IMG/VR virus record: IMGVR_UViG_3300027969_000332
Coordinates: 1-29,190 of that record
Reading direction: 5' to 3' (one strand)
Origin: a virus
Length of the DNA stretch: 29,190 nucleotides
In this document: in pieces, positions 4,365 through 29,190 of the stretch
Numbering within the stretch: the stretch's first letter is position 1
Layout: each line of letters begins with the position of its first letter
Translations under genes and position numbers: made by a program
The notes under the pieces: model-generated
The model's database searches: none
The model's input: only the letters and a program-made list of their open reading frames with translations
What the model was told of the DNA's origin: nothing

Positions 4365-7300
4365 ATGGGAGCTTTTGATCCTGATGCATGGCTTGCTGAA
4401 AGAAGAGCTGCCAAAGAAAAACCGATTGATCTTGAAAAAGCAACTACTGAAAAAGCAACTACTGAAAAACCAGCTGAGCCAACTGCTTCTACCGGATTTG
4501 ATCCGGATGCTTGGCTTGCTAGTAGAAAAACTGCAAGAGGAGAGGCTGCGCCTGCGCCTACTACGGCTACTGAAAAGCCTGTTGAGCCACCACCGGCTAA
4601 AAAAGAAGCGCGTCCAGAAGACCAAAACTTTCTCCGTCAAGTTGCTGACGTTCCATTAAAAGTTGGTAGCGGTGTTGTAAGTGGTGTCCGTATGGTGGCA
4701 GATGCCATGGGCGCTGACTCGGCTGTATCTAAAAACTTACGTGGTGCAGAAGACTGGATTGCTGAGTTATATAGCGCGCAGTCCAAAAAAGACAGTAAGC
4801 GCATGGCTGAGATTATGAAAGCCGCTGAAGATCAAGGCGTGGTTGCAAACATCGTTGCTGCGCTTAACGCTTTTAAAGAAGCTCCGGTCGATCTAATTGC
4901 TCAAGGGCTTGGTACTGCTGCTCCGGGAATTTTGACTGGTATTGCCACATTTGTAGCAGGCGCTCCTGTTGCTTTAGCTACCGCTGCCTCCCTAGGTGTT
5001 GGTACTGTGATGGGTGCTGGTACTGTTAAGAGTTCTATTTATGACGCTACCAAACAAACTCTAGCAGAACAAAAAGATTTAAAACTTTCTCCAAAACAGA
5101 TTGAAGAGATTGCGGTAAAAGCACAAGAGTATGGTGGCAAGAACACCGACATGATTCTGGGGGGCATGATACTTGGAGCTCTCGGTTCTTACTCTGGTGC
5201 TGAGCCAATTATTGCCCGTGAGTTGGGTAAAAAAATCATAGGTAAAGCAGTTGCAGAAGAATCTAAAGCTGTGGCTGGCGCTGCAGCAAAACAAACTGCT
5301 ACTGATGCCGCTATTAAAGCCTCGCAACGGGAAGCAACTGAACTAGCTGCTAAACGCGGTATGTTGAAGAACGCTTCGGTTGCTGGTGGTAAAGAATTCT
5401 TAACTGAGTTTGGTCAAGGCGGTCAAGAACAGTTAGCACAGAACATTGCATTGCAACGTGAGGGCTTTGATGTCCCCACTATGCGCGGTGTAGTGGGTCA
5501 AGGTACGTTGGAAGGTCTTGCTGGTTTAGGCATGGGTGCGCCAGCGGGCGCTATTGAAGCAGCTAGAGCTAAGCGTGAACTAGCTGAAGAAAAAGTTAAG
5601 ACAGAAGGCGAAGATCCTTCTCTTAAGAATGTATTAACTACCGGCAACCTAAACAGAACTAAAGCCGCAATCAGCGCTACGGCTGACGACATAAACACTT
5701 TGGTGCCTGCTACAGATAAAGCAGGTAAAGCGCTAACGGATATTGATCCTGATACGCAGACGGCAAAAACAAAGGCCGATACAGAAGCTGCTGCTGTTGC
5801 AGCGCAGACCAAAATATCTCTTGATGAAGCAACTGTAAAAGCAAATGAGATCATTGCTAAAGCTGACGCTGGAGAGAAATTAAATTTAAAGAACGATATT
5901 CGCCCAGTTGCTAAAGCGCTAGGTGTAAAACTACCGTTTGCAATTTCTAGTGTTGGTGCGATCAAACTTATCAGAGACCAGCTTGGAGAACAAGGAACAC
6001 CAGATGCGACAGCTACAACAGTTAAACCTGCAGAACCTATCAAACCAGCAGATCGAAGTGGTGCTGAGTTGGCTGTTCCATCAAAAGACGTCACCCAGAC
6101 TGGAGACGGAGGAGCTGCCGGACCTATCGCCGGTGGAGTGGTATCTGATGGAACAACTACTGGACCAACTACTGTTGGAAAAGCTGCACAGTCCACTGCA
6201 CTAGATGATTTAAAAGCTAAGAAGGCACAGTTAACAGAACAACGTCTCAAACTGTTTGGTGGCAGTGATAGAAAGCCTAGCCCTAAGTCTAAAAAAGGCG
6301 TGGCGCTTGCCGCACTCAACGCGCAGACTCTTGAGATAGATAACCAAATACAGAAGCTAGAAGCTGAGACTGGTACTACAGAAGTTGCGCAACCTAAAAA
6401 TGCTGCGCAACAGGATATGGATTACCTAAACGATTTGTTAGGTAATGATGGTTTACCCGCCCGTATACGCCGCAGTGACGCACAAATTGAAGTAGACCAA
6501 AAACTTGATGCGCTTGCTAAGCGGTATGGTTTGAGCCGCAGTCTTGATGAGACTGCTAAAGAGTTTGGTGCACGCATTAAAGACGCGATTGAGTTTGAAA
6601 ACATGCGTACAGACAAGCCTTTGTCTGCCGTGTCAGATCAAGACATTGCCAAGCAGACTTTGCGCGAAGACACCTCATACATCCCGCCTGATCTTCAGAT
6701 TGAAGAATATGAGAGACAACGCCAAAAGTTCAACGAGTCTATTGAAAGAGACCCAGAGACAGGTGAACTACAGTCAGATGAACTTCCTGCATATAAGGAA
6801 CTCTCTGCCGATGACCGCCGTGTGTACTTCCAAGAAGGTATTTCACGCCCCGGCGCTGGCTCGAATACAGAACATGCGCAAGCAGCACAAAGACTCTCCG
6901 ACTACCGCAGCGGTGTAAAAGAAGAAGCCGAGCCTTATCAAATAAAAGATAAGAAGACTGGTGAACTTCTATTCAATCCAGATGGTACTCCAATGATGGC
7001 GAAGACTACTTTGCCCGGAGAAACCCGCGCAAGAGAGTCATACAACCGTGAACGCGATTCATTTGGGCGTAAGACAGGTCTATCTTATTCTTTCCCTGCT
7101 TGGAATATTCTGTCAGACGAAAGCAAAAAACTTTTTACGTCGATTTATAAGGCTGATAGTGTTCTTTCACAAGACATGGCGTTTCGTCTAGTAAAGAAAC
7201 AAATACAAAAAGAACTGTCAGAGGAAGCTAGCGGTAATCGTACTCGAAATGAGCAGTCTTGGGTATCGTCTCAAGTTCAACAGGCTATGGAGACGAGTAA

Positions 7301-10300
7301 GACTAAGGGACAAACTACTGAGGCGCTCCCAGCAAATGTAGTTGAAATGCTTTTTAAGGGCGATATCAAAGGTGTATTGGACTACATCTATGAGAATGGT
7401 AATGGTCGCAAACTAAAGACTGTCAAACAGTCGGTTATGACCGACATCTTTATAAATAAACTAGGTCGTAAACAAGCTGGATATAGAAGGCAAAGAGTCA
7501 ATATCCGTGACTCCATTGCTATGGGTGTGTTCCGTCTGGTAGCTGGGCGTCTTGGCGCTATTGAAAACCTACAAGTAAACGTGGTGTATGACCCCGGCAT
7601 GGTCTATGGTGATCTTGCGCGATACAACGCCAACACAAATACTGTTTACGTTGGTCCTAACGGTTTGACCGAAGGCACTATTTTGCATGAATTAGTGCAT
7701 GCTGCTACTGTCAAGATCATCCATCAATTCTTCACTGATCCTTCTAAACTGCCAGCGCACATGCGCAAAGCTGTTGAGCAATTAATTCGCGTCGCAGCTG
7801 CTGCACAAAAACGTCTTGGCGGTATTGAAAAATACAAAGAAGCGTTTGACAATATTTATGAGTTTATTGCTTATGCAATGACCGACCCTGATTTTCAAGC
7901 TGATCTGGCTAACCAGCAGGTTGAGAGCCTTGCTACTGTCACCTCTAGGGATGAAGAACAATCTGAAGCACTCCGTTTAGAGCGTGAGAGGGCTGGCGGA
8001 GAAAAGCAGTACGACTCATTTATGGACAACTTGTTCAACTCGTTTACTGGCGCGTTGGCATACATGTACAAGTTGTTTACGCCAAAGTCTAAGTCTGAAA
8101 AGGTTTATCTCTATACAGAGCAAACAGGCTTTCCAAAAGTACGCACAGAAAAAGAAATTAAAGAAGGTGAAGAGTTAGAAAAGGCAGCAAAGGGGCCCGG
8201 AAAAGAGATGACTGCCTCGGAGATGGAAGCGTTGTCTCCCGGTAAGTTGTTTGACAGAATCAATGAAAAGCCAGAGGGCGAACCCAAGTTCAAGTCAACG
8301 ATTCAATACTCGCATGTCAACGGCATTACCAATTTGAAGAAAGCTTTTTTGCGTGAGCCCGGCTTCAAGGGTAATCTTCTTTTAGAAGCTGCCGAGATGT
8401 TCCAGTTAATCCTTGCTGCACCAGAAGGTGGCATAGCGCAGTTGGCAGGTAAGGGGAGCATCGGTTCAGAACTTGCCGCTAAAGATCAAAATAAACCACC
8501 AGCAGCGCCGCGTGAAGGTGGCGGCATCTATAAGAAAGAGATACGTGATAGTTACGCGTTATCTGTACTTGAAAAGTCAGCCTCTAGAACTAAAGCGTTT
8601 TTAAACCGAGTCTTCACTAACAAAGGCTGGAGAAAAACATTTACAGAAAACATTGACCGTACGTTACCTTTGCGGTTACGTGAGCAACAATTCAGTAGGG
8701 CTAAAAAGCTAGAGCGTGATCCGACTAAATATTTTAACAATATTGTTGAGCACATGGATAACGCGTCTGGTAAGGCGCGTCAGTATTTAGTTCAATACAT
8801 ATACGAACCGATGAAGGAACTGCAAGATAGCATCGCAGAGCTAGCTAAGATAACTAAGCAGGACATAGAGAAAGATATTCTGCCTACACTGCATATGCTG
8901 GCTGAAGCATTTGGTGAGCCTGAGAAGCGCCACATGAAATGGTTACTTAGCGTACCACTTAGCCTAACTAAAAATCTAATGCACAACGGCAAGATGATAA
9001 GCGCTGCTCAGCGTCGTATTGACTTGATGGGTGATCCACGCACTGGTAAACCCGGTATTGTTCATAAGATTGAATTGACTGAAGCTCAACAGAAACAAGT
9101 ACGCGCTGAGTTAGAAGCGTTGGCAAAAGGGCATGTTGACCCATTAGGTGATAGCCCACGTATTAAAAACGAAAAGATCCGTGAACGTGCGCTGACTAAG
9201 CGTCAGAAGAAGAATCAACTTGGTGTGATGGACATCAACGAAGATAGCTCTACCTATAACGTATTGGGTATTAACAAAGAAGAAGTTGAACTGCGTTTAC
9301 AGCAGTTTAAGGATATGGATCCGGCTGAAAAAGAAGCTATCAATAAAGTAATGGCTTCTATCCGTAAGCTTACAAAGAGTACTTCTGATCTTAATAAGAT
9401 TGGTAACTACTGGTCGTACCCTGTGACTAACATTGTGGGTATCTACGACTACCAGAACTACATGCCGTTCAAAGGTTTGGCAAAGCACTCCATCGTGGAT
9501 GAGATGATTGAGCCAGATGGTGGACGCACTAAGACAAGTCGTATCCTTATAGATGAAGAGAAGGCAGCGCATGGTCGTTTCACCGTGTCTGATAACCCAA
9601 TCCTACAGACAATGAGTGATGCTGCCCGTGCCGCTGGTCGTGCGGGCCGTGCTGAGTTTATGCAGGCTGTACTGAATGCATCTAACCCAGACAAGAAAAA
9701 GAATCCAAACGGTACAGGCATTATTGATGCCGATGTAGTTGAGCGCGTAGAGTTTGCAGACAAAGAAACAACCGACCTATCAAAATACAAAGGCAAGTCA
9801 CACATATTTGTGCATAGCCCTGACGGTAGTCTTAGCATCATCAAGGTTAATGAGCCTGACATCCTCAAAGCGTTACGCTACCAGTACAAAGACAACGGGT
9901 TCTTGATGGACTTAGCTGCTCAACTTACTAGCAAAGTTGGGTCTATGCACACTAGATGGAACATGAACTTTGCAGCTAAGAACTTTGTTAGCGATACGTT
10001 GCAGAACGCTTGGAACATAGGCGCTGGAACAGTTGGTCCATTGAGCTCGCTCAAGTATTTAATAGATACCGTAAGTACCACTGTTACTAAGAACGGTCTT
10101 GGTAAGTCCATGGAAGTCGCTATGCTCTATGAGAATGGCGATGATGCGAGCAACCTCAGACTACGTGAAATGGCAGAAAAAGATGAGTTTGTTGCCGCCC
10201 TACTCAAGATGCTGAAGTTTGGTGGTAAGACAGCCTATATCCAGAGCATGTCTCTTAAATCCAGCTTAAATGAGTTGGAAAAAGGAGTGACTAAAAATGG

Positions 10301-11795
10301 TGTGACTAAGAGCCTTGAGGCAGTAGGTAAAGTCGCTGACGTCTGGGGTAGTATGTTTGAATTTACAAGCCGCGCTGCTGCTTTCCAACTATTCGAGCGT
10401 GAGTACCTTAAGCGAGAGATAGAAGCCGGGACATCTAATAAAAGAGAACCCGGGGAAGAAATGTCTCCAGCGGAATATGCTGCCGCTGTACGTGCCGCTG
10501 CTGATACAAAGAACTTAACTAATTTTGAGTTAGTGGGCTCGGCTGATTCAGCAACATGGATGTCTACATTTTTCATGTTCTTTAAAGCGTCAGCAGTTAG
10601 TTCATTACGTACTATGGAATCACTCTCCCCAATGTTCCGTAGGATGGAGTGGGAAGAGAAACTACTGCCCCCAGCTATCCGCGATGACCAGACAGCTCTA
10701 AATAACTGGAGAAAAGAATACAAGAATCTGCAAACTAATGCACAAATTATGTTTGGTTCGTTGGCTGCTTTTGGTTACGCTATGTACATCATGTCAATGA
10801 TGATGGCTCCCGAAGATGAGTGGAGGCGTAACGCTACTAAGACTGACAACATGGATCAATGGATTCGTTATGCGCGTTTCCATCTACCTCCTAGCATCCT
10901 TAAATACATGGGTCTACGTGAAGATACTGTGTTGCAGTCGCCTTGGGGCTTTGGTCTAGGCGCTATCGCATCTATGGGCGCGCAGATAGCTGGCATGGTT
11001 CATGGTGAGACTTCGTTGAAGAAGGGCTTAGCAAATATTGCTGCTGGGTCGTTGGCTGATGCGTTCTTCCCATTGCCTGTCTCTAAGATGCCTTGGTCAG
11101 AAATGCCGGGTTATGCTATTGCAGACACTATGACACCTTCGCTTGTACGTCCTTACTTCGAGTACTTATTCAACATTGACGGTGTGGGTCGCGCTATTAA
11201 CAGCACTTCAAACAGACGTCTAGGTGATGCTTATACAGGAAGTGATCGCGTGCCGCAGGTTTATAAAGACATATCTGACAAAATGTTCCGTGTCTCTAAT
11301 GGTGATTTTAGTTGGCCTCCTAACACAATACATTTCTTTGCTAATAGCTATATTGACGGTATTGCGCGTTTGGGTGAAGTTGCTTACTCATTAGTAGGCG
11401 TTAGTAAAGAAGAGAAGACATTCAACCCTAAGACTGACTTACCTTTGTTTGGCTCGTTCTTTGGCGCTAAATCTAACGTTGATGCAAGAGAGTACAGCGC
11501 GATGGAGTCACAGATCAAGAAGATGGATAAGACTATCTATACTCTTGAACAACAAGATCCTGCTGGCGCGCTTCAGTACGAAGCAAAAAATCCGTTCAAT
11601 GTTACGCTTGTGGAAATGTACAAGGCTCGCCAAGGTGAACTTAATAAACTACGACAGAAGGCTACTGAGATCCGTACAGATAGAACGCTTCAACCTAGCT
11701 CTAAAGAGGCGATGCTAAAGATTATTACCTTTGAGCAAAACATCATCAAGCATGAGATGGTGGAAGACTTCAAAGCATACGGATTGAAACCCTAA
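4365..11795 (+). CDS. Giant polyvalent virion protein: zincin metallopeptidase motif and LPD38-like C-terminus
   Basis: 2476 residues. The N-terminus carries two copies of FDPDAWLA (residues 4-11 and 45-52) in a disordered Glu/Lys/Thr linker. Gly/Ala-rich hydrophobic stretches follow (about 190-235 and 263-275), possibly membrane-inserting, then a long Ala/Lys/Thr linker. A zinc metallopeptidase motif HELVH is at 1108-1112, with Glu1166 in YEFIAYAMTDPDF as candidate third ligand. Residues about 1866-2200 (NMNFAAKNFVSDTLQNAWN onward, hydrophobic 2128-2152) match the style of LPD38, the large polyvalent-protein-associated domain 38. Polyvalent proteins are described as multi-domain effectors of phages and conjugative elements thought to enter the cell with the DNA. 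The N-terminal repeats, the peptidase and the terminal position in the virion cluster fit an ejected protein; its substrate is unknown. The stop overlaps the stop of the convergent gene. Confidence 0.8.
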   Translation: MGAFDPDAWLAERRAAKEKPIDLEKATTEKATTEKPAEPTASTGFDPDAWLASRKTARGEAAPAPTTATEKPVEPPPAKKEARPEDQNFLRQVADVPLKVGSGVVSGVRMVADAMGADSAVSKNLRGAEDWIAELYSAQSKKDSKRMAEIMKAAEDQGVVANIVAALNAFKEAPVDLIAQGLGTAAPGILTGIATFVAGAPVALATAASLGVGTVMGAGTVKSSIYDATKQTLAEQKDLKLSPKQIEEIAVKAQEYGGKNTDMILGGMILGALGSYSGAEPIIARELGKKIIGKAVAEESKAVAGAAAKQTATDAAIKASQREATELAAKRGMLKNASVAGGKEFLTEFGQGGQEQLAQNIALQREGFDVPTMRGVVGQGTLEGLAGLGMGAPAGAIEAARAKRELAEEKVKTEGEDPSLKNVLTTGNLNRTKAAISATADDINTLVPATDKAGKALTDIDPDTQTAKTKADTEAAAVAAQTKISLDEATVKANEIIAKADAGEKLNLKNDIRPVAKALGVKLPFAISSVGAIKLIRDQLGEQGTPDATATTVKPAEPIKPADRSGAELAVPSKDVTQTGDGGAAGPIAGGVVSDGTTTGPTTVGKAAQSTALDDLKAKKAQLTEQRLKLFGGSDRKPSPKSKKGVALAALNAQTLEIDNQIQKLEAETGTTEVAQPKNAAQQDMDYLNDLLGNDGLPARIRRSDAQIEVDQKLDALAKRYGLSRSLDETAKEFGARIKDAIEFENMRTDKPLSAVSDQDIAKQTLREDTSYIPPDLQIEEYERQRQKFNESIERDPETGELQSDELPAYKELSADDRRVYFQEGISRPGAGSNTEHAQAAQRLSDYRSGVKEEAEPYQIKDKKTGELLFNPDGTPMMAKTTLPGETRARESYNRERDSFGRKTGLSYSFPAWNILSDESKKLFTSIYKADSVLSQDMAFRLVKKQIQKELSEEASGNRTRNEQSWVSSQVQQAMETSKTKGQTTEALPANVVEMLFKGDIKGVLDYIYENGNGRKLKTVKQSVMTDIFINKLGRKQAGYRRQRVNIRDSIAMGVFRLVAGRLGAIENLQVNVVYDPGMVYGDLARYNANTNTVYVGPNGLTEGTILHELVHAATVKIIHQFFTDPSKLPAHMRKAVEQLIRVAAAAQKRLGGIEKYKEAFDNIYEFIAYAMTDPDFQADLANQQVESLATVTSRDEEQSEALRLERERAGGEKQYDSFMDNLFNSFTGALAYMYKLFTPKSKSEKVYLYTEQTGFPKVRTEKEIKEGEELEKAAKGPGKEMTASEMEALSPGKLFDRINEKPEGEPKFKSTIQYSHVNGITNLKKAFLREPGFKGNLLLEAAEMFQLILAAPEGGIAQLAGKGSIGSELAAKDQNKPPAAPREGGGIYKKEIRDSYALSVLEKSASRTKAFLNRVFTNKGWRKTFTENIDRTLPLRLREQQFSRAKKLERDPTKYFNNIVEHMDNASGKARQYLVQYIYEPMKELQDSIAELAKITKQDIEKDILPTLHMLAEAFGEPEKRHMKWLLSVPLSLTKNLMHNGKMISAAQRRIDLMGDPRTGKPGIVHKIELTEAQQKQVRAELEALAKGHVDPLGDSPRIKNEKIRERALTKRQKKNQLGVMDINEDSSTYNVLGINKEEVELRLQQFKDMDPAEKEAINKVMASIRKLTKSTSDLNKIGNYWSYPVTNIVGIYDYQNYMPFKGLAKHSIVDEMIEPDGGRTKTSRILIDEEKAAHGRFTVSDNPILQTMSDAARAAGRAGRAEFMQAVLNASNPDKKKNPNGTGIIDADVVERVEFADKETTDLSKYKGKSHIFVHSPDGSLSIIKVNEPDILKALRYQYKDNGFLMDLAAQLTSKVGSMHTRWNMNFAAKNFVSDTLQNAWNIGAGTVGPLSSLKYLIDTVSTTVTKNGLGKSMEVAMLYENGDDASNLRLREMAEKDEFVAALLKMLKFGGKTAYIQSMSLKSSLNELEKGVTKNGVTKSLEAVGKVADVWGSMFEFTSRAAAFQLFEREYLKREIEAGTSNKREPGEEMSPAEYAAAVRAAADTKNLTNFELVGSADSATWMSTFFMFFKASAVSSLRTMESLSPMFRRMEWEEKLLPPAIRDDQTALNNWRKEYKNLQTNAQIMFGSLAAFGYAMYIMSMMMAPEDEWRRNATKTDNMDQWIRYARFHLPPSILKYMGLREDTVLQSPWGFGLGAIASMGAQIAGMVHGETSLKKGLANIAAGSLADAFFPLPVSKMPWSEMPGYAIADTMTPSLVRPYFEYLFNIDGVGRAINSTSNRRLGDAYTGSDRVPQVYKDISDKMFRVSNGDFSWPPNTIHFFANSYIDGIARLGEVAYSLVGVSKEEKTFNPKTDLPLFGSFFGAKSNVDAREYSAMESQIKKMDKTIYTLEQQDPAGALQYEAKNPFNVTLVEMYKARQGELNKLRQKATEIRTDRTLQPSSKEAMLKIITFEQNIIKHEMVEDFKAYGLKP
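4434..4463 (+). repeat. Two tandem 15-base repeats in the N-terminal linker
   Basis: Two perfect in-frame copies of GAAAAAGCAACTACT followed by a six-base partial copy encode the repeated EKATT. They lie between the two FDPDAWLA motifs of the giant protein. Replication slippage in a disordered linker explains them. Confidence 0.85.
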
Positions 11796-24038: not shown

Positions 24039-24554
24039 TTACTTGGCTAACTTAGCGATCTCACGATTGAGATACCAACGCGCCTTGCATAAATCTTCGT
24101 GCTTGTCGCCCTTGTGATCGGCTCGTGTAATGTATTTCACAACATTGCCCAAGTTGTATCCCAACGACTTCGCTTCGATAAAGTCAATAGTCTCAATACC
24201 ACCTGCCGTGTAGTGGGGCGGATGGTTGACCATATCGGTGTGATGCACCTCTATGATGCGTTGCTCTTCTTTACCCTCGCCTACTTTATAGGCTCGTATT
24301 AGTTCGGCTACGGATTTATTAGTGGTCAGTGCTTCTACTGAAACATTCCCCTGCATGCGTGCCTTCTGTTTCCACACGGCATCTTTGCCACGACCAACTT
24401 TGTGTAGGCGTAACTTCTTGCGTGCGTTATACATTAGGTTGTGTGCGGAGTCCATCGCCACCCCGATCTCTTTTGATAATTCATTCGCTGATAAATTAAA
24501 GTTTTTAGCCACGAGTTTTATTGACTTGGCTTGGTTGCTGTTCGATCTAATCAT
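24039..24554 (-). CDS. HTH-DUF3310 fusion protein (T7 gp1.7-like C-terminal domain)
   Basis: 171 residues. The N-terminal half (about 10-65) reads as a DNA-binding helix-turn-helix: AKSIKLVAKNFNLSANELSK, then a helix EIGVAMDSAHNLMYNARKKL and a basic stretch. The C-terminal half is a clear DUF3310 domain: MVNHPPHYTAGGIETIDFIE (108-127), GNVVKYITRADHKGDKHEDL (136-155) and KARWYLNREI. In T7, gp1.7 carries this domain and is reported as a nucleoside monophosphate kinase, so a role in nucleotide supply is possible; the domain alone does not prove activity. The ATG at 24554 follows AAGGAG and overlaps the upstream gene by 8 bases. Coupling a DNA-binding head to this domain is unusual in my memory. 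Confidence 0.8.
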   Translation of the reverse strand: MIRSNSNQAKSIKLVAKNFNLSANELSKEIGVAMDSAHNLMYNARKKLRLHKVGRGKDAVWKQKARMQGNVSVEALTTNKSVAELIRAYKVGEGKEEQRIIEVHHTDMVNHPPHYTAGGIETIDFIEAKSLGYNLGNVVKYITRADHKGDKHEDLCKARWYLNREIAKLAK

Positions 24555-24753
24555 GTGCCTTCTCCTTCTTGATACGGCTTTTTACGGATACGATTCCCTT
24601 TAGTTGTAGGTCTCGTGCTTCTTGCATAGCATCTGCGAGTTCATATGCTAGGGATGGAATAGTGGGCGGATGTTCTCCTTTCATGAGTAGCCCAATCATT
24701 GCAAACCCCGCATGTAGATCTCGCAGATTGCTACGATCTTCTTCATCGGTCAT
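24547..24753 (-). CDS. Small conserved phage protein, ADAM-helix type
   Basis: 68 residues. HAGFAMIGLLM, then PSLAYELADAMQEARD, matches the closing helix of the 22317-22529 protein (CYAMADAMMKAREE), so the two are probable paralogs. The DYFA box of that protein appears here as HAGFAM. The tail is basic (SRIKKEKAHD) and its codons provide the AAGGAG used by the next gene. The ATG at 24753 shares one base with the upstream stop (TAATG). Function unknown. Confidence 0.7.
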   Translation of the reverse strand: MTDEEDRSNLRDLHAGFAMIGLLMKGEHPPTIPSLAYELADAMQEARDLQLKGIVSVKSRIKKEKAHD

Positions 24754-25037
24754 TACAGTCCTTTCAATAAAGAATCTAACTCGTCATAGTTATCTTCGTT
24801 AACTACAAGTGTGTGTCCCCCTCGCCCACGAATATTCTTCATGTGGTCGAGTTGTAGTGCAGTTGGTTTGTTGTCGCCTGACTTTGCTTCAATACCAATA
24901 AACTTTCCCTTATGGCATACAACAAAATCAGGCACACCCATGCAACCAAACCCAGTGCCGATAGGCATGGTGAAGTAGGCATCATGTGCCTTAAGAATCT
25001 TTTTGATCTTGTCCTTGACCTTGCCTTCGGGTGTCAT
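24753..25037 (-). CDS. VRR-NUC domain nuclease
   Basis: 94 residues, almost exactly one VRR-NUC domain. Motifs: Glu4 in the opening helix (PEGKVKDKIKKIL), GVPDFVV with Asp37, GIEAKSG with Glu50 and Lys52, and LQLDHM with Gln62, ending GHTLVVNE. These are the PD-(D/E)XK core residues of the family found in phage nucleases and in FAN1. Stand-alone VRR-NUC proteins of phages have been reported to cut branched DNA such as Holliday junctions, so resolving replication or recombination intermediates before packaging is the likely job. The ATG overlaps the stop of the 34-residue membrane peptide as ATGA. Confidence 0.88.
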   Translation of the reverse strand: MTPEGKVKDKIKKILKAHDAYFTMPIGTGFGCMGVPDFVVCHKGKFIGIEAKSGDNKPTALQLDHMKNIRGRGGHTLVVNEDNYDELDSLLKGL

Positions 25038-25138
25038 TCGTCATCCTTACTCAACATAAAGATTGCTACGCCAACAATCACTACGATCGCCCCGCCCATG
25101 ACCATTAGCATCACTGCCCACGCAATAGTTTCAAGCAT
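25034..25138 (-). CDS. 34-residue single-pass membrane peptide
   Basis: MLETIAWAVMLMVMGGAIVV continues as IVGVAIFMLSKDDE. One membrane-spanning segment of about 22 residues is followed by a charged C-terminus (SKDDE). The ATG at 25138 follows AAGGAG by seven bases and overlaps the upstream gene by 8 bases; the stop overlaps the nuclease start as ATGA. Its precise fit between two genes supports translation. No family is recognised; small-peptide membrane effectors and lysis regulators are possible roles. Confidence 0.65.
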   Translation of the reverse strand: MLETIAWAVMLMVMGGAIVVIVGVAIFMLSKDDE

Positions 25139-25490
25139 TTTCTTTCTCCTTAGTTAGAGTCCCACCCTTCAGTGAGTTTAAAGTTAAGCGATCTATCACC
25201 AAGCAAAACCATGTATCAGATACACGCCAACCCACCAACGCAAGTTCGGGCATGCTGACGCTATACACATCTAATTTCTGTAGCCTATGCTCGGGTATGA
25301 GATTGGGTTGTGGTGACGCAAGAATCATTGCCATCTTTGATTTCAATACATCAGGCAATGTCTTTTCATCGTAGTGGCGCACGAGGTCATCAGATACATA
25401 CACGCTGTATTTGTTCTCAAACTTGTGCAAAGGAACTCTGATGAGATTCCAGTCCTTCGGATGCACGACAGGGCTCATGTGTCCTAGCAT
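25131..25490 (-). CDS. Phage protein of unknown function
   Basis: 119 residues from ATG 25490, which overlaps the upstream stop by 7 bases after GGTGA; an in-frame ATG at 25505 would add five residues. A beta-rich pattern is visible: WNLIRVPLHKFENKYSVYVS, then QKLDVYSVSMPELALVGWRV and TWFCLVIDRLTL. It holds no known motif. The tail KEKENA codes the AAGGAG that serves the next gene. It belongs to the leftward operon led by the VWA protein. Confidence 0.65.
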   Translation of the reverse strand: MLGHMSPVVHPKDWNLIRVPLHKFENKYSVYVSDDLVRHYDEKTLPDVLKSKMAMILASPQPNLIPEHRLQKLDVYSVSMPELALVGWRVSDTWFCLVIDRLTLNSLKGGTLTKEKENA

Positions 25491-26398
25491 GGTGTCACCA
25501 TCCATGCGTGATCGTAAATAGTTGGGCGAGAGTTGTAGAAGAACACCGCATCGAGGTTCGGGTCATACCCATCCATGATAGGTATGAAGCCTTGCCTGCT
25601 ATGGTTAGAGTTCTCATAGGCTAACTTGGTCATAGTCATTACTGGAATGAACTCTGCCACTTGCTCGAAACTACCATAGCGTTTGAACGGCTCGACTGTT
25701 TCATAACATAATTTACTTGCATCTGAACTCACTGTTGTTAACTTGAATTTACCGATGAGGTAGTGATCGTTCACATCAACACCAATCATGTAGAAAGGGT
25801 TAGTAAAGAACCGATTACTCTCTTCGATCTTTGTTTTCTTGATTTTATCTGCTTCCTCGAATTTGTCAAGTATTATTTGACATTTATTTTGGTCTACTTG
25901 CACCCATTCGCTATTAGGACTTTTACCTAGTGCCATCAACATCAATGCATGAACTTCATTACCAGTCAACCCATGATCTTTGTTGTGGTTACCCAAGTCT
26001 GTGCGCAATCTACTTACTGCATCGGTGAGTCTGCGCACATAGGTATGAGTTGTTTTCTCAACAGCAGGCACTGCTTCCATGCGCTTGAGTGTTGCCATGA
26101 GTGAAGAGATTTTTACACTACCAACAGTCTCTCTGTCTGATGCACTGCTACCTCGTTGTTTCCTATACCAAGGCGAGCGGTATTTGTATTGAGTTTCATC
26201 GTGGTCATACCACACATGGCTCACAGCAAAGCCATTAGGGTGACACATCATGTAGCCGTCACCTTGCGACTTCTGATAGACCTTTAGACCATAGGTAAAT
26301 TGCAACTCACGCACCAGTGGGAAGATCTTTGAGGCTTTCAACTCCTCGTAAGTCTGCTCACTACCAAATCCTTCAACAAAGTATTTCTCTAATGACAT
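25484..26398 (-). CDS. Unknown 304-residue protein of the VWA operon
   Basis: ATG 26398 is chosen because GGGAGA lies five bases upstream and the previous stop is just before it; an upstream in-frame ATG at 26449 lies inside the previous gene. The N-terminal half has ELQFTYGLKVYQKSQGDGYM, then HPNGFAVSHVWYDHDETQ, beta-rich and aromatic. A helical middle (YVRRLTDAVSRLRTDL) follows. The end (EFIPVMTMTKLAYENSNHS, FIPIMDGYDPNLDAVFFYN) is mixed. I recognise no family or catalytic motif. Along with the 359-residue protein it is one of two large unknowns beside the VWA gene. Confidence 0.7.
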   Translation of the reverse strand: MSLEKYFVEGFGSEQTYEELKASKIFPLVRELQFTYGLKVYQKSQGDGYMMCHPNGFAVSHVWYDHDETQYKYRSPWYRKQRGSSASDRETVGSVKISSLMATLKRMEAVPAVEKTTHTYVRRLTDAVSRLRTDLGNHNKDHGLTGNEVHALMLMALGKSPNSEWVQVDQNKCQIILDKFEEADKIKKTKIEESNRFFTNPFYMIGVDVNDHYLIGKFKLTTVSSDASKLCYETVEPFKRYGSFEQVAEFIPVMTMTKLAYENSNHSRQGFIPIMDGYDPNLDAVFFYNSRPTIYDHAWMVTPC

Positions 26399-26399
26399 A

Positions 26400-26594
26400 T
26401 CAATCTCCCAGTTGTGGTTCTCTAACTTTAATGATGACCGCATAATCAAGTAACTTGATCTGTTTGATCGTCTCCTTTGTGAGCGTTACTGTCCCTGCAA
26501 TTCGTGCAAAGATACACGCCTTCTCGCACACAGGGTAAAACTTTGTTACCCCATACACATCTCTCATCTCTACTTCTATGGCATTTAGACTCAT
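26400..26594 (-). CDS. Small conserved phage protein of unknown function
   Basis: 64 residues from ATG 26594, which overlaps the upstream stop as ATGA; an in-frame ATG at 26675 lies inside that gene. AIEVEMRDVYGVTKFYPVCE, then FARIAGTVTLTKETIKQIK, forms a compact alpha/beta domain. From memory IEVxMRDVYGVxKxYPxC is a recurrent motif of small proteins in uncultured phages. No function is known to me. Confidence 0.7.
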   Translation of the reverse strand: MSLNAIEVEMRDVYGVTKFYPVCEKACIFARIAGTVTLTKETIKQIKLLDYAVIIKVREPQLGD

Positions 26595-27670
26595 GTTGAT
26601 TGCTCCACTTGTTGACCATTGACCATTACTTTCACACCCCAATCGCATGCGGGGTAACGCTTGCCCCCCACGCACGACACCTCCTTGAGAATCGCAGGGT
26701 TTTGTTTATAAATCTCTCTAGCGATCTTGCGCTTAGTAGCCATGAAGATGTTCTCAGGTGTGTCATCAGTATGGTTGTTCATGCCATATCTCATGCGATA
26801 CCCTACATGTCTGACATCATGCGCAAGAGTAAACAACAGCAATGCATCCAATGGCGCATCGTCTATTAGTTTCTCAGCGTGTTCCATGCATTCTTTATTC
26901 ATATTTTTCTTGTGTTCGCCCTCACCGTAGAGACCGTCAACAATCTCAATACAAGTGTTGTTGATTGAGTTCAAATCCATAGCCTTGAGCATCACCTCAG
27001 AAACTTTGAACATATGCTCATACTTTGACAAGACACCCTTTCCAGACTTGCGATCGATATGATGTATGACTACCTCATATGGTGTTACTGCTTCCATCGT
27101 GTCGCAGTTGACACGCATGCCTTTCCATATCGCATGGAACACAGCGTGTTCATCAGTATGGTTGTTCATGCCAAATACCATCCCACCTCTGCGTGAGTCC
27201 GTAGAGAAGTAGCCCGCACTGTTCTGAGATAGAAAGCAACGATCGCCTTGGTAGTAGCGTGACTTAGTGAACTCAAACGAGTTGTCAGGGCGCACAGTGC
27301 CAATGATGTTGTGACCTCTGTCTCGTCTATAGTATTCAAACTGTTTGGGCAGTTCGACATAGTGACCTTTATCGTTGTAGGTATGCTTTACCCACTTGAA
27401 CACATAGGTTTGCGCGCGCTGTGTGCCAGTCGCTTTTCTGAACTTTCTGTGTTCGAGTTTCAGTCGTATGTATTCGAGCCTATCAATCTCAGTTGAGTGC
27501 CATGTCTCTCCATACACGATGTCGAATACTGTGTAACCATCTTCGTCTCGTCTGAGAAAGTATTTGCCGTTCTGCTTGCGGTTACCGATAGGAAACCTAT
27601 TTACGTTCCCACGGAAGGATGGGACTGTATTTGTGATCTCAAGCAGTCGCTTGTAGTTAAATGCTTTCAT
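26591..27670 (-). CDS. Unknown 359-residue protein with internal GMNNHTD duplication
   Basis: ATG 27670 follows AGGAGAAAGAA and overlaps the upstream stop as ATGA; an in-frame ATG at 27739 lies within that gene. The N-terminal 120 residues are basic and aromatic (RFPIGNRKQNGKYFLRRDED). GMNNHTD occurs twice, as FGMNNHTDEHAVFHAIWKG and YGMNNHTDDTPENIF, encoded by an identical 24-base DNA stretch. A helical segment LLLFTLAHDVRHVGYRMRYG and a Cys-containing end (VSCVGGKRYPACDWG) follow. His and Asp residues are frequent, hinting at metal binding, but no catalytic family is recognised. Confidence 0.72.
   Translation of the reverse strand: MKAFNYKRLLEITNTVPSFRGNVNRFPIGNRKQNGKYFLRRDEDGYTVFDIVYGETWHSTEIDRLEYIRLKLEHRKFRKATGTQRAQTYVFKWVKHTYNDKGHYVELPKQFEYYRRDRGHNIIGTVRPDNSFEFTKSRYYQGDRCFLSQNSAGYFSTDSRRGGMVFGMNNHTDEHAVFHAIWKGMRVNCDTMEAVTPYEVVIHHIDRKSGKGVLSKYEHMFKVSEVMLKAMDLNSINNTCIEIVDGLYGEGEHKKNMNKECMEHAEKLIDDAPLDALLLFTLAHDVRHVGYRMRYGMNNHTDDTPENIFMATKRKIAREIYKQNPAILKEVSCVGGKRYPACDWGVKVMVNGQQVEQST
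26763..26786 (-). repeat. 24-base direct repeat, copy 2 within the 359-residue gene
   Basis: Identical over 24 bases to 27150-27173, same strand and same reading frame, encoding GMNNHTDD here. The copies are 387 bases apart, a multiple of three. Confidence 0.9.
27150..27173 (-). repeat. 24-base direct repeat, copy 1 within the 359-residue gene
   Basis: Identical to 26763-26786 and in the same frame, encoding GMNNHTDE. Perfect DNA identity at both copies, while the surroundings differ, suggests a recent copy or gene conversion, or strong selection on the peptide. Confidence 0.9.
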
Positions 27671-28083
27671 TTCTTTCTCCTGTTTAAACGTGTAACTGTT
27701 TCTTTGAAGTATTGAATAGCGTCGGCTTGATGTTTCCATGTTTCACCGCCATTGTCATCACCATAAACATGGGCGTAGTAATGATTACTTCCCACTTCTA
27801 GCATTCCCTTGCTTTTTATCTTTGGGAAATCAAAGTGGTAGTGTTGACACCACAGTAAATCCGATTCAGATTCGGGATGCTCCAATGCCCACTCAACTTT
27901 CGTCAGCACCGCCATACCCTTGGGCAAGCGGTCAACAATGCTTTGTGCAAACTCCTTGTCGGGTTCAACATCGGGTGGTGTGTTTCTGAATTGCTCAAAC
28001 AAAACTTGCGCCTTGTCTTCGCCATGCTCTTCAATCAAGTCATCTAAATCTACATAAGGTGTAGTAAGTATTGATATATTCAT
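27667..28083 (-). CDS. Phage protein of unknown function
   Basis: 138 residues. An acidic N-terminal half (DLDDLIEEHGEDKAQVLFEQ) is followed by a His/Tyr/Trp-rich centre (LLWCQHYHFDFPKIKSKG, VGSNHYYAHVYGDDNGGETW) that looks like a small beta domain, and a basic end (TVTRLNRRKK). The codons of that end give AGGAG for the next start. It overlaps both neighbours by ATGA. No family is recognised; the His cluster could bind metal. Confidence 0.65.
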   Translation of the reverse strand: MNISILTTPYVDLDDLIEEHGEDKAQVLFEQFRNTPPDVEPDKEFAQSIVDRLPKGMAVLTKVEWALEHPESESDLLWCQHYHFDFPKIKSKGMLEVGSNHYYAHVYGDDNGGETWKHQADAIQYFKETVTRLNRRKK

Positions 28084-28304
28084 TTTTTCCCTTTCATTTC
28101 ATCAAGACAAGTTAATACATCCCGCCATAGGCGGGGGCTTTGTGTGTTGTTAGCAAGTTTCTCTGTGCAGAAGAAATATGCACGATCGCCCATCTCTACT
28201 GTTAGTTCAATCGCTATCTCTCTAGACATTCGGTGTCTAGATATATCAGTGATATTTCTGTTACTAGCCATTTCCCTAAATTGAATTGCTGTTTCGTTAA
28301 TCAT
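28080..28304 (-). CDS. Small phage protein of unknown function
   Basis: 74 residues from ATG 28304, which overlaps the VWA stop by 8 bases; a TTG at 28310 is a weaker option. It is helical and charged: NETAIQFREMASNRNITDIS, then REIAIELTVEMGDRAYFFCT and a C-terminal helix with RLWRDVLTCLDEMKGKK. No motif is recognised. Its coupling to the VWA gene suggests coordinated synthesis. Confidence 0.6.
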   Translation of the reverse strand: MINETAIQFREMASNRNITDISRHRMSREIAIELTVEMGDRAYFFCTEKLANNTQSPRLWRDVLTCLDEMKGKK

Positions 28305-29190
28305 CGCCAAACACCACCATCTTGCCGACAGGAGGCTCGAAGTTTTTGTTGCGTGTGATCATCCACATCGTTGGGCTAGAGATATTCCATTGGATGTCAT
28401 GCTCTAGGTATCCATCGGTGAACACCAATACACACTCGGCATTTAGTTTCTCTTTGTTGATGTAGTCATTCACACAGGTGACGGTAGTCCCGCCACCGCC
28501 TAATGGTTTCAACAATGATGCGATGTTTTGATACTCGGCTTGGTTGAACACTTGCTCACCATGAACTTGGGTATCCCACCACAACACACGAACACGCTCG
28601 GGTTGGGCGATGTCGCAGATAGAGACCAGTTCTGTAGCGAACTCAGTTATCTCCTCACTACCAATAGAACCCGATGTGTCGATGGCAACGATAACCTCGC
28701 CTATCGTTTCATTCTCTACACTTGGTAAGAGAATGTCGTTAGCCAAATGACGCTTGTTCAACTTGCGCCATGTGAACTCATCCTTACCTTGGATTGATGA
28801 TGTAACGAAGTCACGCAACGCTTCACGCCAATCAATCTTGGGCTCGAGTAGATCGCTGATTGATCTAGGAATCTTTGCACCCATGCGACCCGCAAGCATG
28901 CCACCCTCACGCAACGCACGATCAATGTTGTCATTGATCTCCTTGACTTGCTCATGTGTGAGTTCACCACCGAAGTCATGTTCGTCTGCGTTAGAAAGGT
29001 CATACTCCTTGCCGTTGACTTCAACCGACTCCCACTCACCATCACCATCATCCTTATCTTGCTTCCCACCCGACTGTGGGTCATTACATTGCTCATTACC
29101 TTTCTGTGGCTGTGGCTTAGGCTTCGGCTTAGCGTGCTTCTTCAGATAGTTAAACACCTCACGCATCGACCAGTTGTGGAACATCTCGTC
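28297..29190 (-). CDS. VWA-domain protein (DUF2201-like), 5'-truncated
   Basis: The frame stays open to the window edge (two more codons before the ATG at 29184), so the N-terminus is missing. Counting from that ATG: a Lys/Pro/Gln-rich linker (15-50), a helical part, then a von Willebrand A domain with MIDAS motifs VIVAIDTSGSIGSEEI (DTSGS at 169-173), GGGGTT (229-234) and FTDG (255-258). The opening DEMFHNWSMREVFNYLKK resembles the end of the DUF2201 N-terminal region, a putative metallopeptidase, in VWA-like proteins. VWA proteins of this kind usually work with MoxR-type AAA+ ATPases to remodel protein complexes; such a partner would be expected upstream, beyond 29190. It heads a run of phage genes of unknown function. 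Confidence 0.85.
   Translation of the reverse strand, partial: DEMFHNWSMREVFNYLKKHAKPKPKPQPQKGNEQCNDPQSGGKQDKDDGDGEWESVEVNGKEYDLSNADEHDFGGELTHEQVKEINDNIDRALREGGMLAGRMGAKIPRSISDLLEPKIDWREALRDFVTSSIQGKDEFTWRKLNKRHLANDILLPSVENETIGEVIVAIDTSGSIGSEEITEFATELVSICDIAQPERVRVLWWDTQVHGEQVFNQAEYQNIASLLKPLGGGGTTVTCVNDYINKEKLNAECVLVFTDGYLEHDIQWNISSPTMWMITRNKNFEPPVGKMVVFGDD

What the first reader, a model, noticed from the sequence alone, without database searches (positions are those of the whole stretch)
28297..29190. Phage-borne VWA protein at the head of an operon of unknown proteins; predicted MoxR-type partner outside the window
The MIDAS motifs are clear and the N-terminus is cut by the window edge. 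Known VWA/DUF2201 proteins pair with MoxR AAA+ ATPases. Here the VWA gene is translationally coupled to unknown proteins of 74, 138, 359, 64, 304 and 119 residues, down to base 25131. This block is the best candidate in the window for an undescribed system: it might remodel a host or phage complex. Partnership and function are inference.
Basis: partly seen in the sequence, partly recalled or inferred. Interest (0 to 1): 0.6.

Follow-up and report, generated by a model that had tools for sequence, protein, structure and literature searches.

The report
Phage AAA+ chaperone–peptidase operon, edge-cut
The window ends inside a phage gene whose relatives sit next to an ATP-driven protein-remodelling motor and two or three partner proteins; the motor pair is known from other phages, but the partners are undescribed and part of the set also rides on conjugative plasmids, which makes its function a testable open question.

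Summary
Bases 28297-29190 (minus strand) encode the C-terminal 297 residues of a DUF2201 VWA protein, coupled by 1-8 nt junctions to ORFs of 74, 138, 359, 64, 304 and 119 aa. The window is a whole IMG/VR fragment, so I tested the predictions in relatives. In 80 related viral contigs, each one with room upstream carries a same-strand MoxR-like AAA+ gene (77 loci). All 106 distinct complete VWA proteins carry HExxH, DxSxS and TDG. The 304- and 359-aa families were never found without VWA/MoxR where the contig had room (38/38 and 24/24).

The MoxR + metallopeptidase-VWA pair is not new: it is core in N4-like phages (function unknown) and was described in jumbo phages, where virion assembly was proposed. 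New here are a conserved third gene before MoxR, a distant relative of DUF3150 proteins; the same MoxR-DUF3150-VWA trio on seven of seven plasmids examined, most of them conjugative; and a fast-evolving 304-aa protein as an apparently obligate fourth member in this uncultivated lineage. Plasmid carriage and position among replication genes argue against a purely virion-assembly role. Function is inferred: ATP-driven remodelling/clipping. New variant of a known kind.

The parts
28297..29190 (-). C-terminal 297 aa of DUF2201_N (metallopeptidase-like) + DUF2201 VWA protein; N-terminus with HExxH lies beyond the window edge
28666..28680 (-). MIDAS motif 1, DTSGS
   Evidence: invariant in alignment A5
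28486..28500 (-). MIDAS region GGGGT (conserved Thr)
28411..28419 (-). MIDAS motif TDG
28080..28304 (-). 74-aa ORF (76 aa with TTG start), present in a subset of relatives
27667..28083 (-). 138-aa ORF, found in no relative tested; probably accessory
26591..27670 (-). 359-aa protein (family p382): lineage-restricted, fast-evolving, predicted with confidence, no PDB match
26400..26594 (-). 64-aa ORF, present in a subset of relatives
25484..26398 (-). 304-aa protein (family p321): present in every relative whose contig reaches it, fast-evolving, confident model without PDB match
25131..25490 (-). 119-aa protein (family p124), found in most relatives
24753..25037 (-). 94-aa nuclease-like protein (phrog_93 endonuclease), conserved downstream neighbour; membership in the system uncertain

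Best explanation
The window carries the 3' half of an operon for a MoxR-type AAA+ remodelling machine. In intact relatives the order is DUF3150-like protein, MoxR AAA+ ATPase, DUF2201 protein (HExxH metallopeptidase-like domain + VWA), small ORFs, 359-aa protein (often), 304-aa protein (apparently always), 119-aa protein, nuclease, then the DNA replication genes. Most likely mechanism: the MoxR hexamer uses ATP to pull on the VWA co-chaperone; the MIDAS of the VWA domain grips a client peptide, and the N-terminal zincin-like domain clips or releases it; the DUF3150-like protein is a constant structural or adaptor subunit; the fast-evolving 304- and 359-aa proteins are client-side adaptors or the clients themselves. 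The client is probably a protein complex met early in infection (replication, transcription or host-defence machinery), not mainly the virion. Shown: gene order, co-occurrence, conserved catalytic and MIDAS motifs, homology of the third gene to DUF3150 proteins of plasmids. Inferred: physical complex, peptidase activity, client and timing.
For: MoxR upstream in 77 of 77 loci with room, and the third gene in 70 of 70. MoxR Walker A in 96/96 distinct proteins; HExxH, DxSxS and TDG in 106/106 distinct complete VWA proteins. MoxR profile matches midasin best among PDB chains (E=2.9e-5) and phrog_1297 'ATPase' (5e-48). Third gene: hhalign 98.9% to MinM2 DUF3150, 99.6% and 98.8% to plasmid proteins. 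MoxR-DUF3150-VWA trio on seven of seven plasmids examined. p321/p382 never without VWA and MoxR where there is room; p321 lies 3-12 nt after VWA in L051, L065, L079, L081. Where MoxR is 50-70% identical between loci, median identity is 57-60% for VWA and 49-50% for the third gene but 19-25% for p321 and p382. Same strand as and next to PolA, SNF2 and DUF927 genes; also beside replication genes in XC38, MinM2 and Rhizobium phage RHph_TM3_14A.
Against: No complex, peptidase activity or client has been shown. Constant gene order in one phage lineage can reflect shared descent rather than a joint function; p321 and p382 were not found in the other MoxR-VWA phages and plasmids examined. The published proposal for the jumbo-phage pair is virion assembly (PMC7824862). 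The MoxR helix-2 insert was not checked on a structure.
Confidence: 0.5

Rival explanations
1. Virion assembly machine: MoxR and the metallopeptidase-VWA protein assemble and clip structural proteins, as proposed for group 2.2 jumbo phages and by analogy with the Acidianus two-tailed virus tail system.
For: Published proposal for the same domain pair (PMC7824862); a MoxR-VWA pair in archaeal virus tail assembly is cited there and in PMC7159879.
Against: The same trio sits on plasmids, which make no virions. In the window the block is on the minus strand with the replication genes while the large plus-strand genes on the other side look like structural or ejected proteins (inference); XC38, MinM2 and the Rhizobium phage also place it next to replication genes.
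Confidence: 0.2
2. Counter-defence or host takeover module: the machine extracts or cleaves a host protein that resists the incoming element; the fast-evolving 304/359-aa proteins choose the host target.
For: Carried by both phages and conjugative plasmids, which share the entry problem; client-side proteins diverge much faster than the motor.
Against: No match to PADLOC models for the main proteins; no known anti-defence gene recognised among the neighbours; fast divergence is common for small phage proteins (p124 is fast too).
Confidence: 0.2
3. Metal or cofactor insertion chaperone of the NorQD/CbbQO kind acting on a phage enzyme.
For: Several MoxR-VWA pairs do this (PMC13036017 for NorQD).
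Against: No metalloenzyme partner recognised in the block; the conserved HExxH domain is not part of NorD as far as I know (own knowledge).
Confidence: 0.07

Closest known systems
N4-like phages (Schitoviridae) core genes gp24 (AAA+ ATPase) and gp25 (vWFA)
   Same: MoxR-like AAA+ followed by DUF2201_N+DUF2201 VWA protein, next to helicase/DNA polymerase genes in XC38; the window protein matches phrog_1314, to which these belong by annotation, at 1.3e-59
   Different: No DUF3150-like third gene and no p321/p382 found near it in the two Schitoviridae regions examined, XC38 and MIF8; function there is also unknown
Group 2.2 jumbo-phage MoxR + metallopeptidase-vWA pair (Iyer et al. 2021, PMC7824862)
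   Same: Same two-protein design with an N-terminal metallopeptidase fused to the VWA domain
   Different: Described there as a pair with a proposed virion-assembly role; no third or fourth partner in the passages read
MoxR-DUF3150-VWA trio of plasmids (Burkholderiales, Rhodovastum) and of Synechococcus phage MinM2
   Same: Homologous MoxR, DUF3150-like and VWA proteins in one cluster
   Different: Order differs (the phage lineage has the DUF3150-like gene before MoxR); no p321/p382
Rhizobium phage RHph_TM3_14A (among the closest isolates by DNA polymerase)
   Same: MoxR and DUF2201 VWA genes just upstream of the DNA polymerase A gene
   Different: No third gene, p321 or p382 detected
RavA-ViaA, NorQ-NorD, CbbQ-CbbO
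   Same: MoxR AAA+ motor with VWA partner
   Different: Bacterial chromosomal chaperones; no N-terminal DUF2201_N domain as far as I know (own knowledge)

Membership tests
DUF2201 VWA-like / DUF2201_N putative metallopeptidase protein | Pfam PF09967 and PF13203 above curated cut-offs | tested here: met
   Window 62.5 and 45.7 bits against cut-offs 26.4 and 23.2; full-length L003 60.6 and 79.1 bits
DUF2201 VWA-like / DUF2201_N putative metallopeptidase protein | HExxH in the N-terminal domain | tested here: met
   106 of 106 distinct complete relatives; not visible in the window itself, which lacks the N-terminus
DUF2201 VWA-like / DUF2201_N putative metallopeptidase protein | Peptidase activity | not testable with these tools
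   Needs biochemistry
MoxR-VWA pair | Adjacent same-strand MoxR-clade AAA+ gene | tested here: met
   77 of 77 relatives with room; shown in relatives, the window's own copy is beyond its edge
MoxR-VWA pair | MoxR-clade helix-2 insert in the AAA+ domain | not tested
   No structure made; midasin is the best PDB profile match, SPR-type sensor 2 seen in the alignment
MoxR-VWA pair | MIDAS with both conserved Asp in the VWA domain | tested here: met
   DTSGS and TDG invariant
MoxR-VWA pair | Physical complex of the two proteins | not testable with these tools
   Needs biochemistry or complex prediction
DUF3150 (PF11348) for the third gene | Pfam score above curated cut-off | tested here: not met
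   Best 22.0 bits against cut-off 24.9 in L034, none in L003
DUF3150 (PF11348) for the third gene | Full-length homology to annotated DUF3150 proteins in the same gene context | tested here: met
   hhalign 98.9%, E=2.4e-17 over 267 columns to the MinM2 DUF3150 protein; HMMER 6e-20 to the annotated Cupriavidus DUF3150 protein. So a distant relative, not a formal Pfam member
Known anti-phage defence system | PADLOC model match | tested here: not met
   No match for the third gene, MoxR, VWA, 359-, 304- or 119-aa proteins

The most novel reading that the evidence does not exclude
A four-part AAA+ machine (DUF3150-like, MoxR, peptidase-VWA, 304-aa adaptor or client) whose three-gene core is shared by phages and conjugative plasmids and serves their establishment or replication in a new cell rather than virion assembly.
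Probability: 0.35. Interest if true: 0.75.

Novelty: new variant of a known kind. Interest (0 to 1): 0.5.

Why it matters
gp24 and gp25 of N4 and its relatives are core genes listed without a function in the papers read, and the one published proposal found for this protein pair is virion assembly. Finding the same motor, with a shared third subunit that no paper in the held library names by its Pfam label, on plasmids that make no virions narrows the possible functions and gives a direct test in laboratory E. coli phage N4 or in a soil bacterium's plasmid. It also gives two protein families with confident models and no PDB match.

Tried and rejected
p382 (359 aa) as a second metallopeptidase: the window's 'HDVRH' and L003's 'HEVRH' are not conserved in the family, rejected. 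p382 and p321 as homologues of each other, of the 300/346-aa genes after VWA in MinM2, or of the 257-aa gene in the Rhizobium phage: hhalign probabilities under 1%, rejected. Profile scans with the very divergent p321/p382 alignments could not be run; subclade alignments were used instead. Fold searches: p321 (mean pLDDT 91.4) has no PDB match below E=0.001 and best VIA Z 4.7, only unnamed or uncharacterised viral models at E below 0.001; p382 (86.4) has no PDB match, best Z 3.8. p321 profile hits to PDB at E about 0.002 were short and unrelated. Host: the only genome-contig hit is L200 in an actinobacterial MAG, but its phage block runs into a UDP-glucose dehydrogenase-like ORF that seems to lack its N-terminus, so I suspect an assembly chimera and draw no host from it. 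The PHROG label 'HNH endonuclease' for this VWA family is not supported by Pfam and was not adopted. The promoter scan found fewer sites than shuffles.

Full report
Observation. The minus-strand frame 28297-29190 is open to the window edge. MIDAS motifs are at 28666-28680, 28486-28500 and 28411-28419. The record is 29190 bp in all, so the test of the predictions had to be made in relatives.

Relatives. A scan of IMG/VR with the window protein gave 80 loci. In all of them that extend upstream of VWA, a MoxR-like AAA+ gene of about 360 aa lies before VWA on the same strand (77 loci), and where there is still more room a third gene of about 305 aa lies before MoxR (70 loci) (the loci without these genes are those cut at that end). 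Full-length VWA proteins are about 390-470 aa, mostly with HExxH near residue 75; all 106 distinct complete ones keep HExxH, DxSxS and TDG. MoxR proteins have a SEPGxGKS/T-type Walker A and, nearly all, a Walker B, match phrog_1297 'ATPase', and as a profile match midasin best in the PDB.

Downstream families. p321 (304 aa in the window) is in 76 of the 80 relatives; the four others end before it. p382 (359 aa) is in 59; twenty loci have VWA and p321 but no p382, and in several of these VWA and p321 are 3-12 nt apart. Further scans with p321 and p382 subclade profiles gave VWA upstream in 38/38 and 24/24 loci with room, MoxR in 34/34 and 20/20, the third gene in 28/28 and 17/17. Some contigs appear in more than one scan, so these counts are not all independent. 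Neither family, nor the third gene, has a tblastn match in 50,697 phage records.

Rates. In locus pairs with MoxR 50-60% identical, median identity is 57% for VWA, 49% for the third gene, 21% for p382 and 19% for p321. Where DNA polymerase could be compared (MoxR 60-90% identical), MoxR stays within about 8 points of it. The downstream partners diverge much faster. p124 is fast as well, so speed alone does not prove an adaptor role.

The third gene. It scores 22.0 bits against DUF3150 at best, below the cut-off of 24.9, but profile comparison gives 98.9% probability over nearly the whole length with the annotated DUF3150 protein of Synechococcus phage MinM2, which lies between MoxR and VWA there. 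The MinM2 protein led to 42 plasmid records. All seven examined carry MoxR, DUF3150-like and DUF2201 VWA genes in one cluster, adjacent in six and with several small genes between MoxR and the other two in Simplicispira; my profiles find all three families in each, and two of the plasmid proteins were checked by hhalign. Five of the seven are typed conjugative, one mobilizable, one non-mobilizable. The term DUF3150 occurs in no paper of the held library.

What is known. N4-like phages keep gp24 and gp25 as core genes; of the two papers read, one lists gp24 as unknown and gp25 as vWFA domain, the other gp24 as AAA+ ATPase, and neither gives a function. Iyer et al. 2021 describe a MoxR-vWA pair with an N-terminal metallopeptidase in group 2.2 jumbo phages and propose virion assembly. 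MoxR-VWA pairs in general remodel client complexes; [quoted passage not shown] So the pair is known; the third subunit in phages and plasmids, and the p321/p382 linkage, I did not find described.

Interpretation. In four phage groups the genes sit with replication genes, and plasmids carry the trio. That favours an early, genome- or host-directed role over a purely virion role. The motor mechanism is by analogy; the peptidase activity, the complex and the client are not shown.

Structure. p321 (pLDDT 91.4) and p382 (86.4) are confidently predicted but have no significant PDB match; this does not show new folds, since weak matches can be missed.

Noticed in passing
phage records matched, e.g. 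NC_055823.1, NC_023581.1, NC_027388.1: N4-like VWA/metallopeptidase proteins are named 'HNH endonuclease' in NC_ records, the same label as PHROG phrog_1314, while Pfam shows DUF2201_N + DUF2201; probably a propagated mis-annotation.
   Followed up: partly
L200:1-7581 (CAIPLJ010000099.1): Actinobacterial MAG contig in which the phage block (third gene, MoxR, VWA) runs into a UDP-glucose dehydrogenase-like ORF that seems to lack its N-terminus, followed by purE/purK-like genes; looks like an assembly chimera, judged from the translation only.
   Followed up: partly
window 24039-24554: 171-aa protein with a DUF3310 domain (E=1.2e-20) conserved downstream of the block in most relatives.
   Followed up: no
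window 4365-11795: 2476-aa plus-strand protein with an LPD38 polyvalent-protein domain near its C-terminus.
   Followed up: no
L207:6293-7254 and L209:6630-7097: In two plasmids oppositely oriented small genes (one a zinc-finger protein; one predicted by rgi as rphA, on a 468-bp gene far too short for that enzyme as far as I know) lie between the trio and the type IV secretion genes.
   Followed up: no
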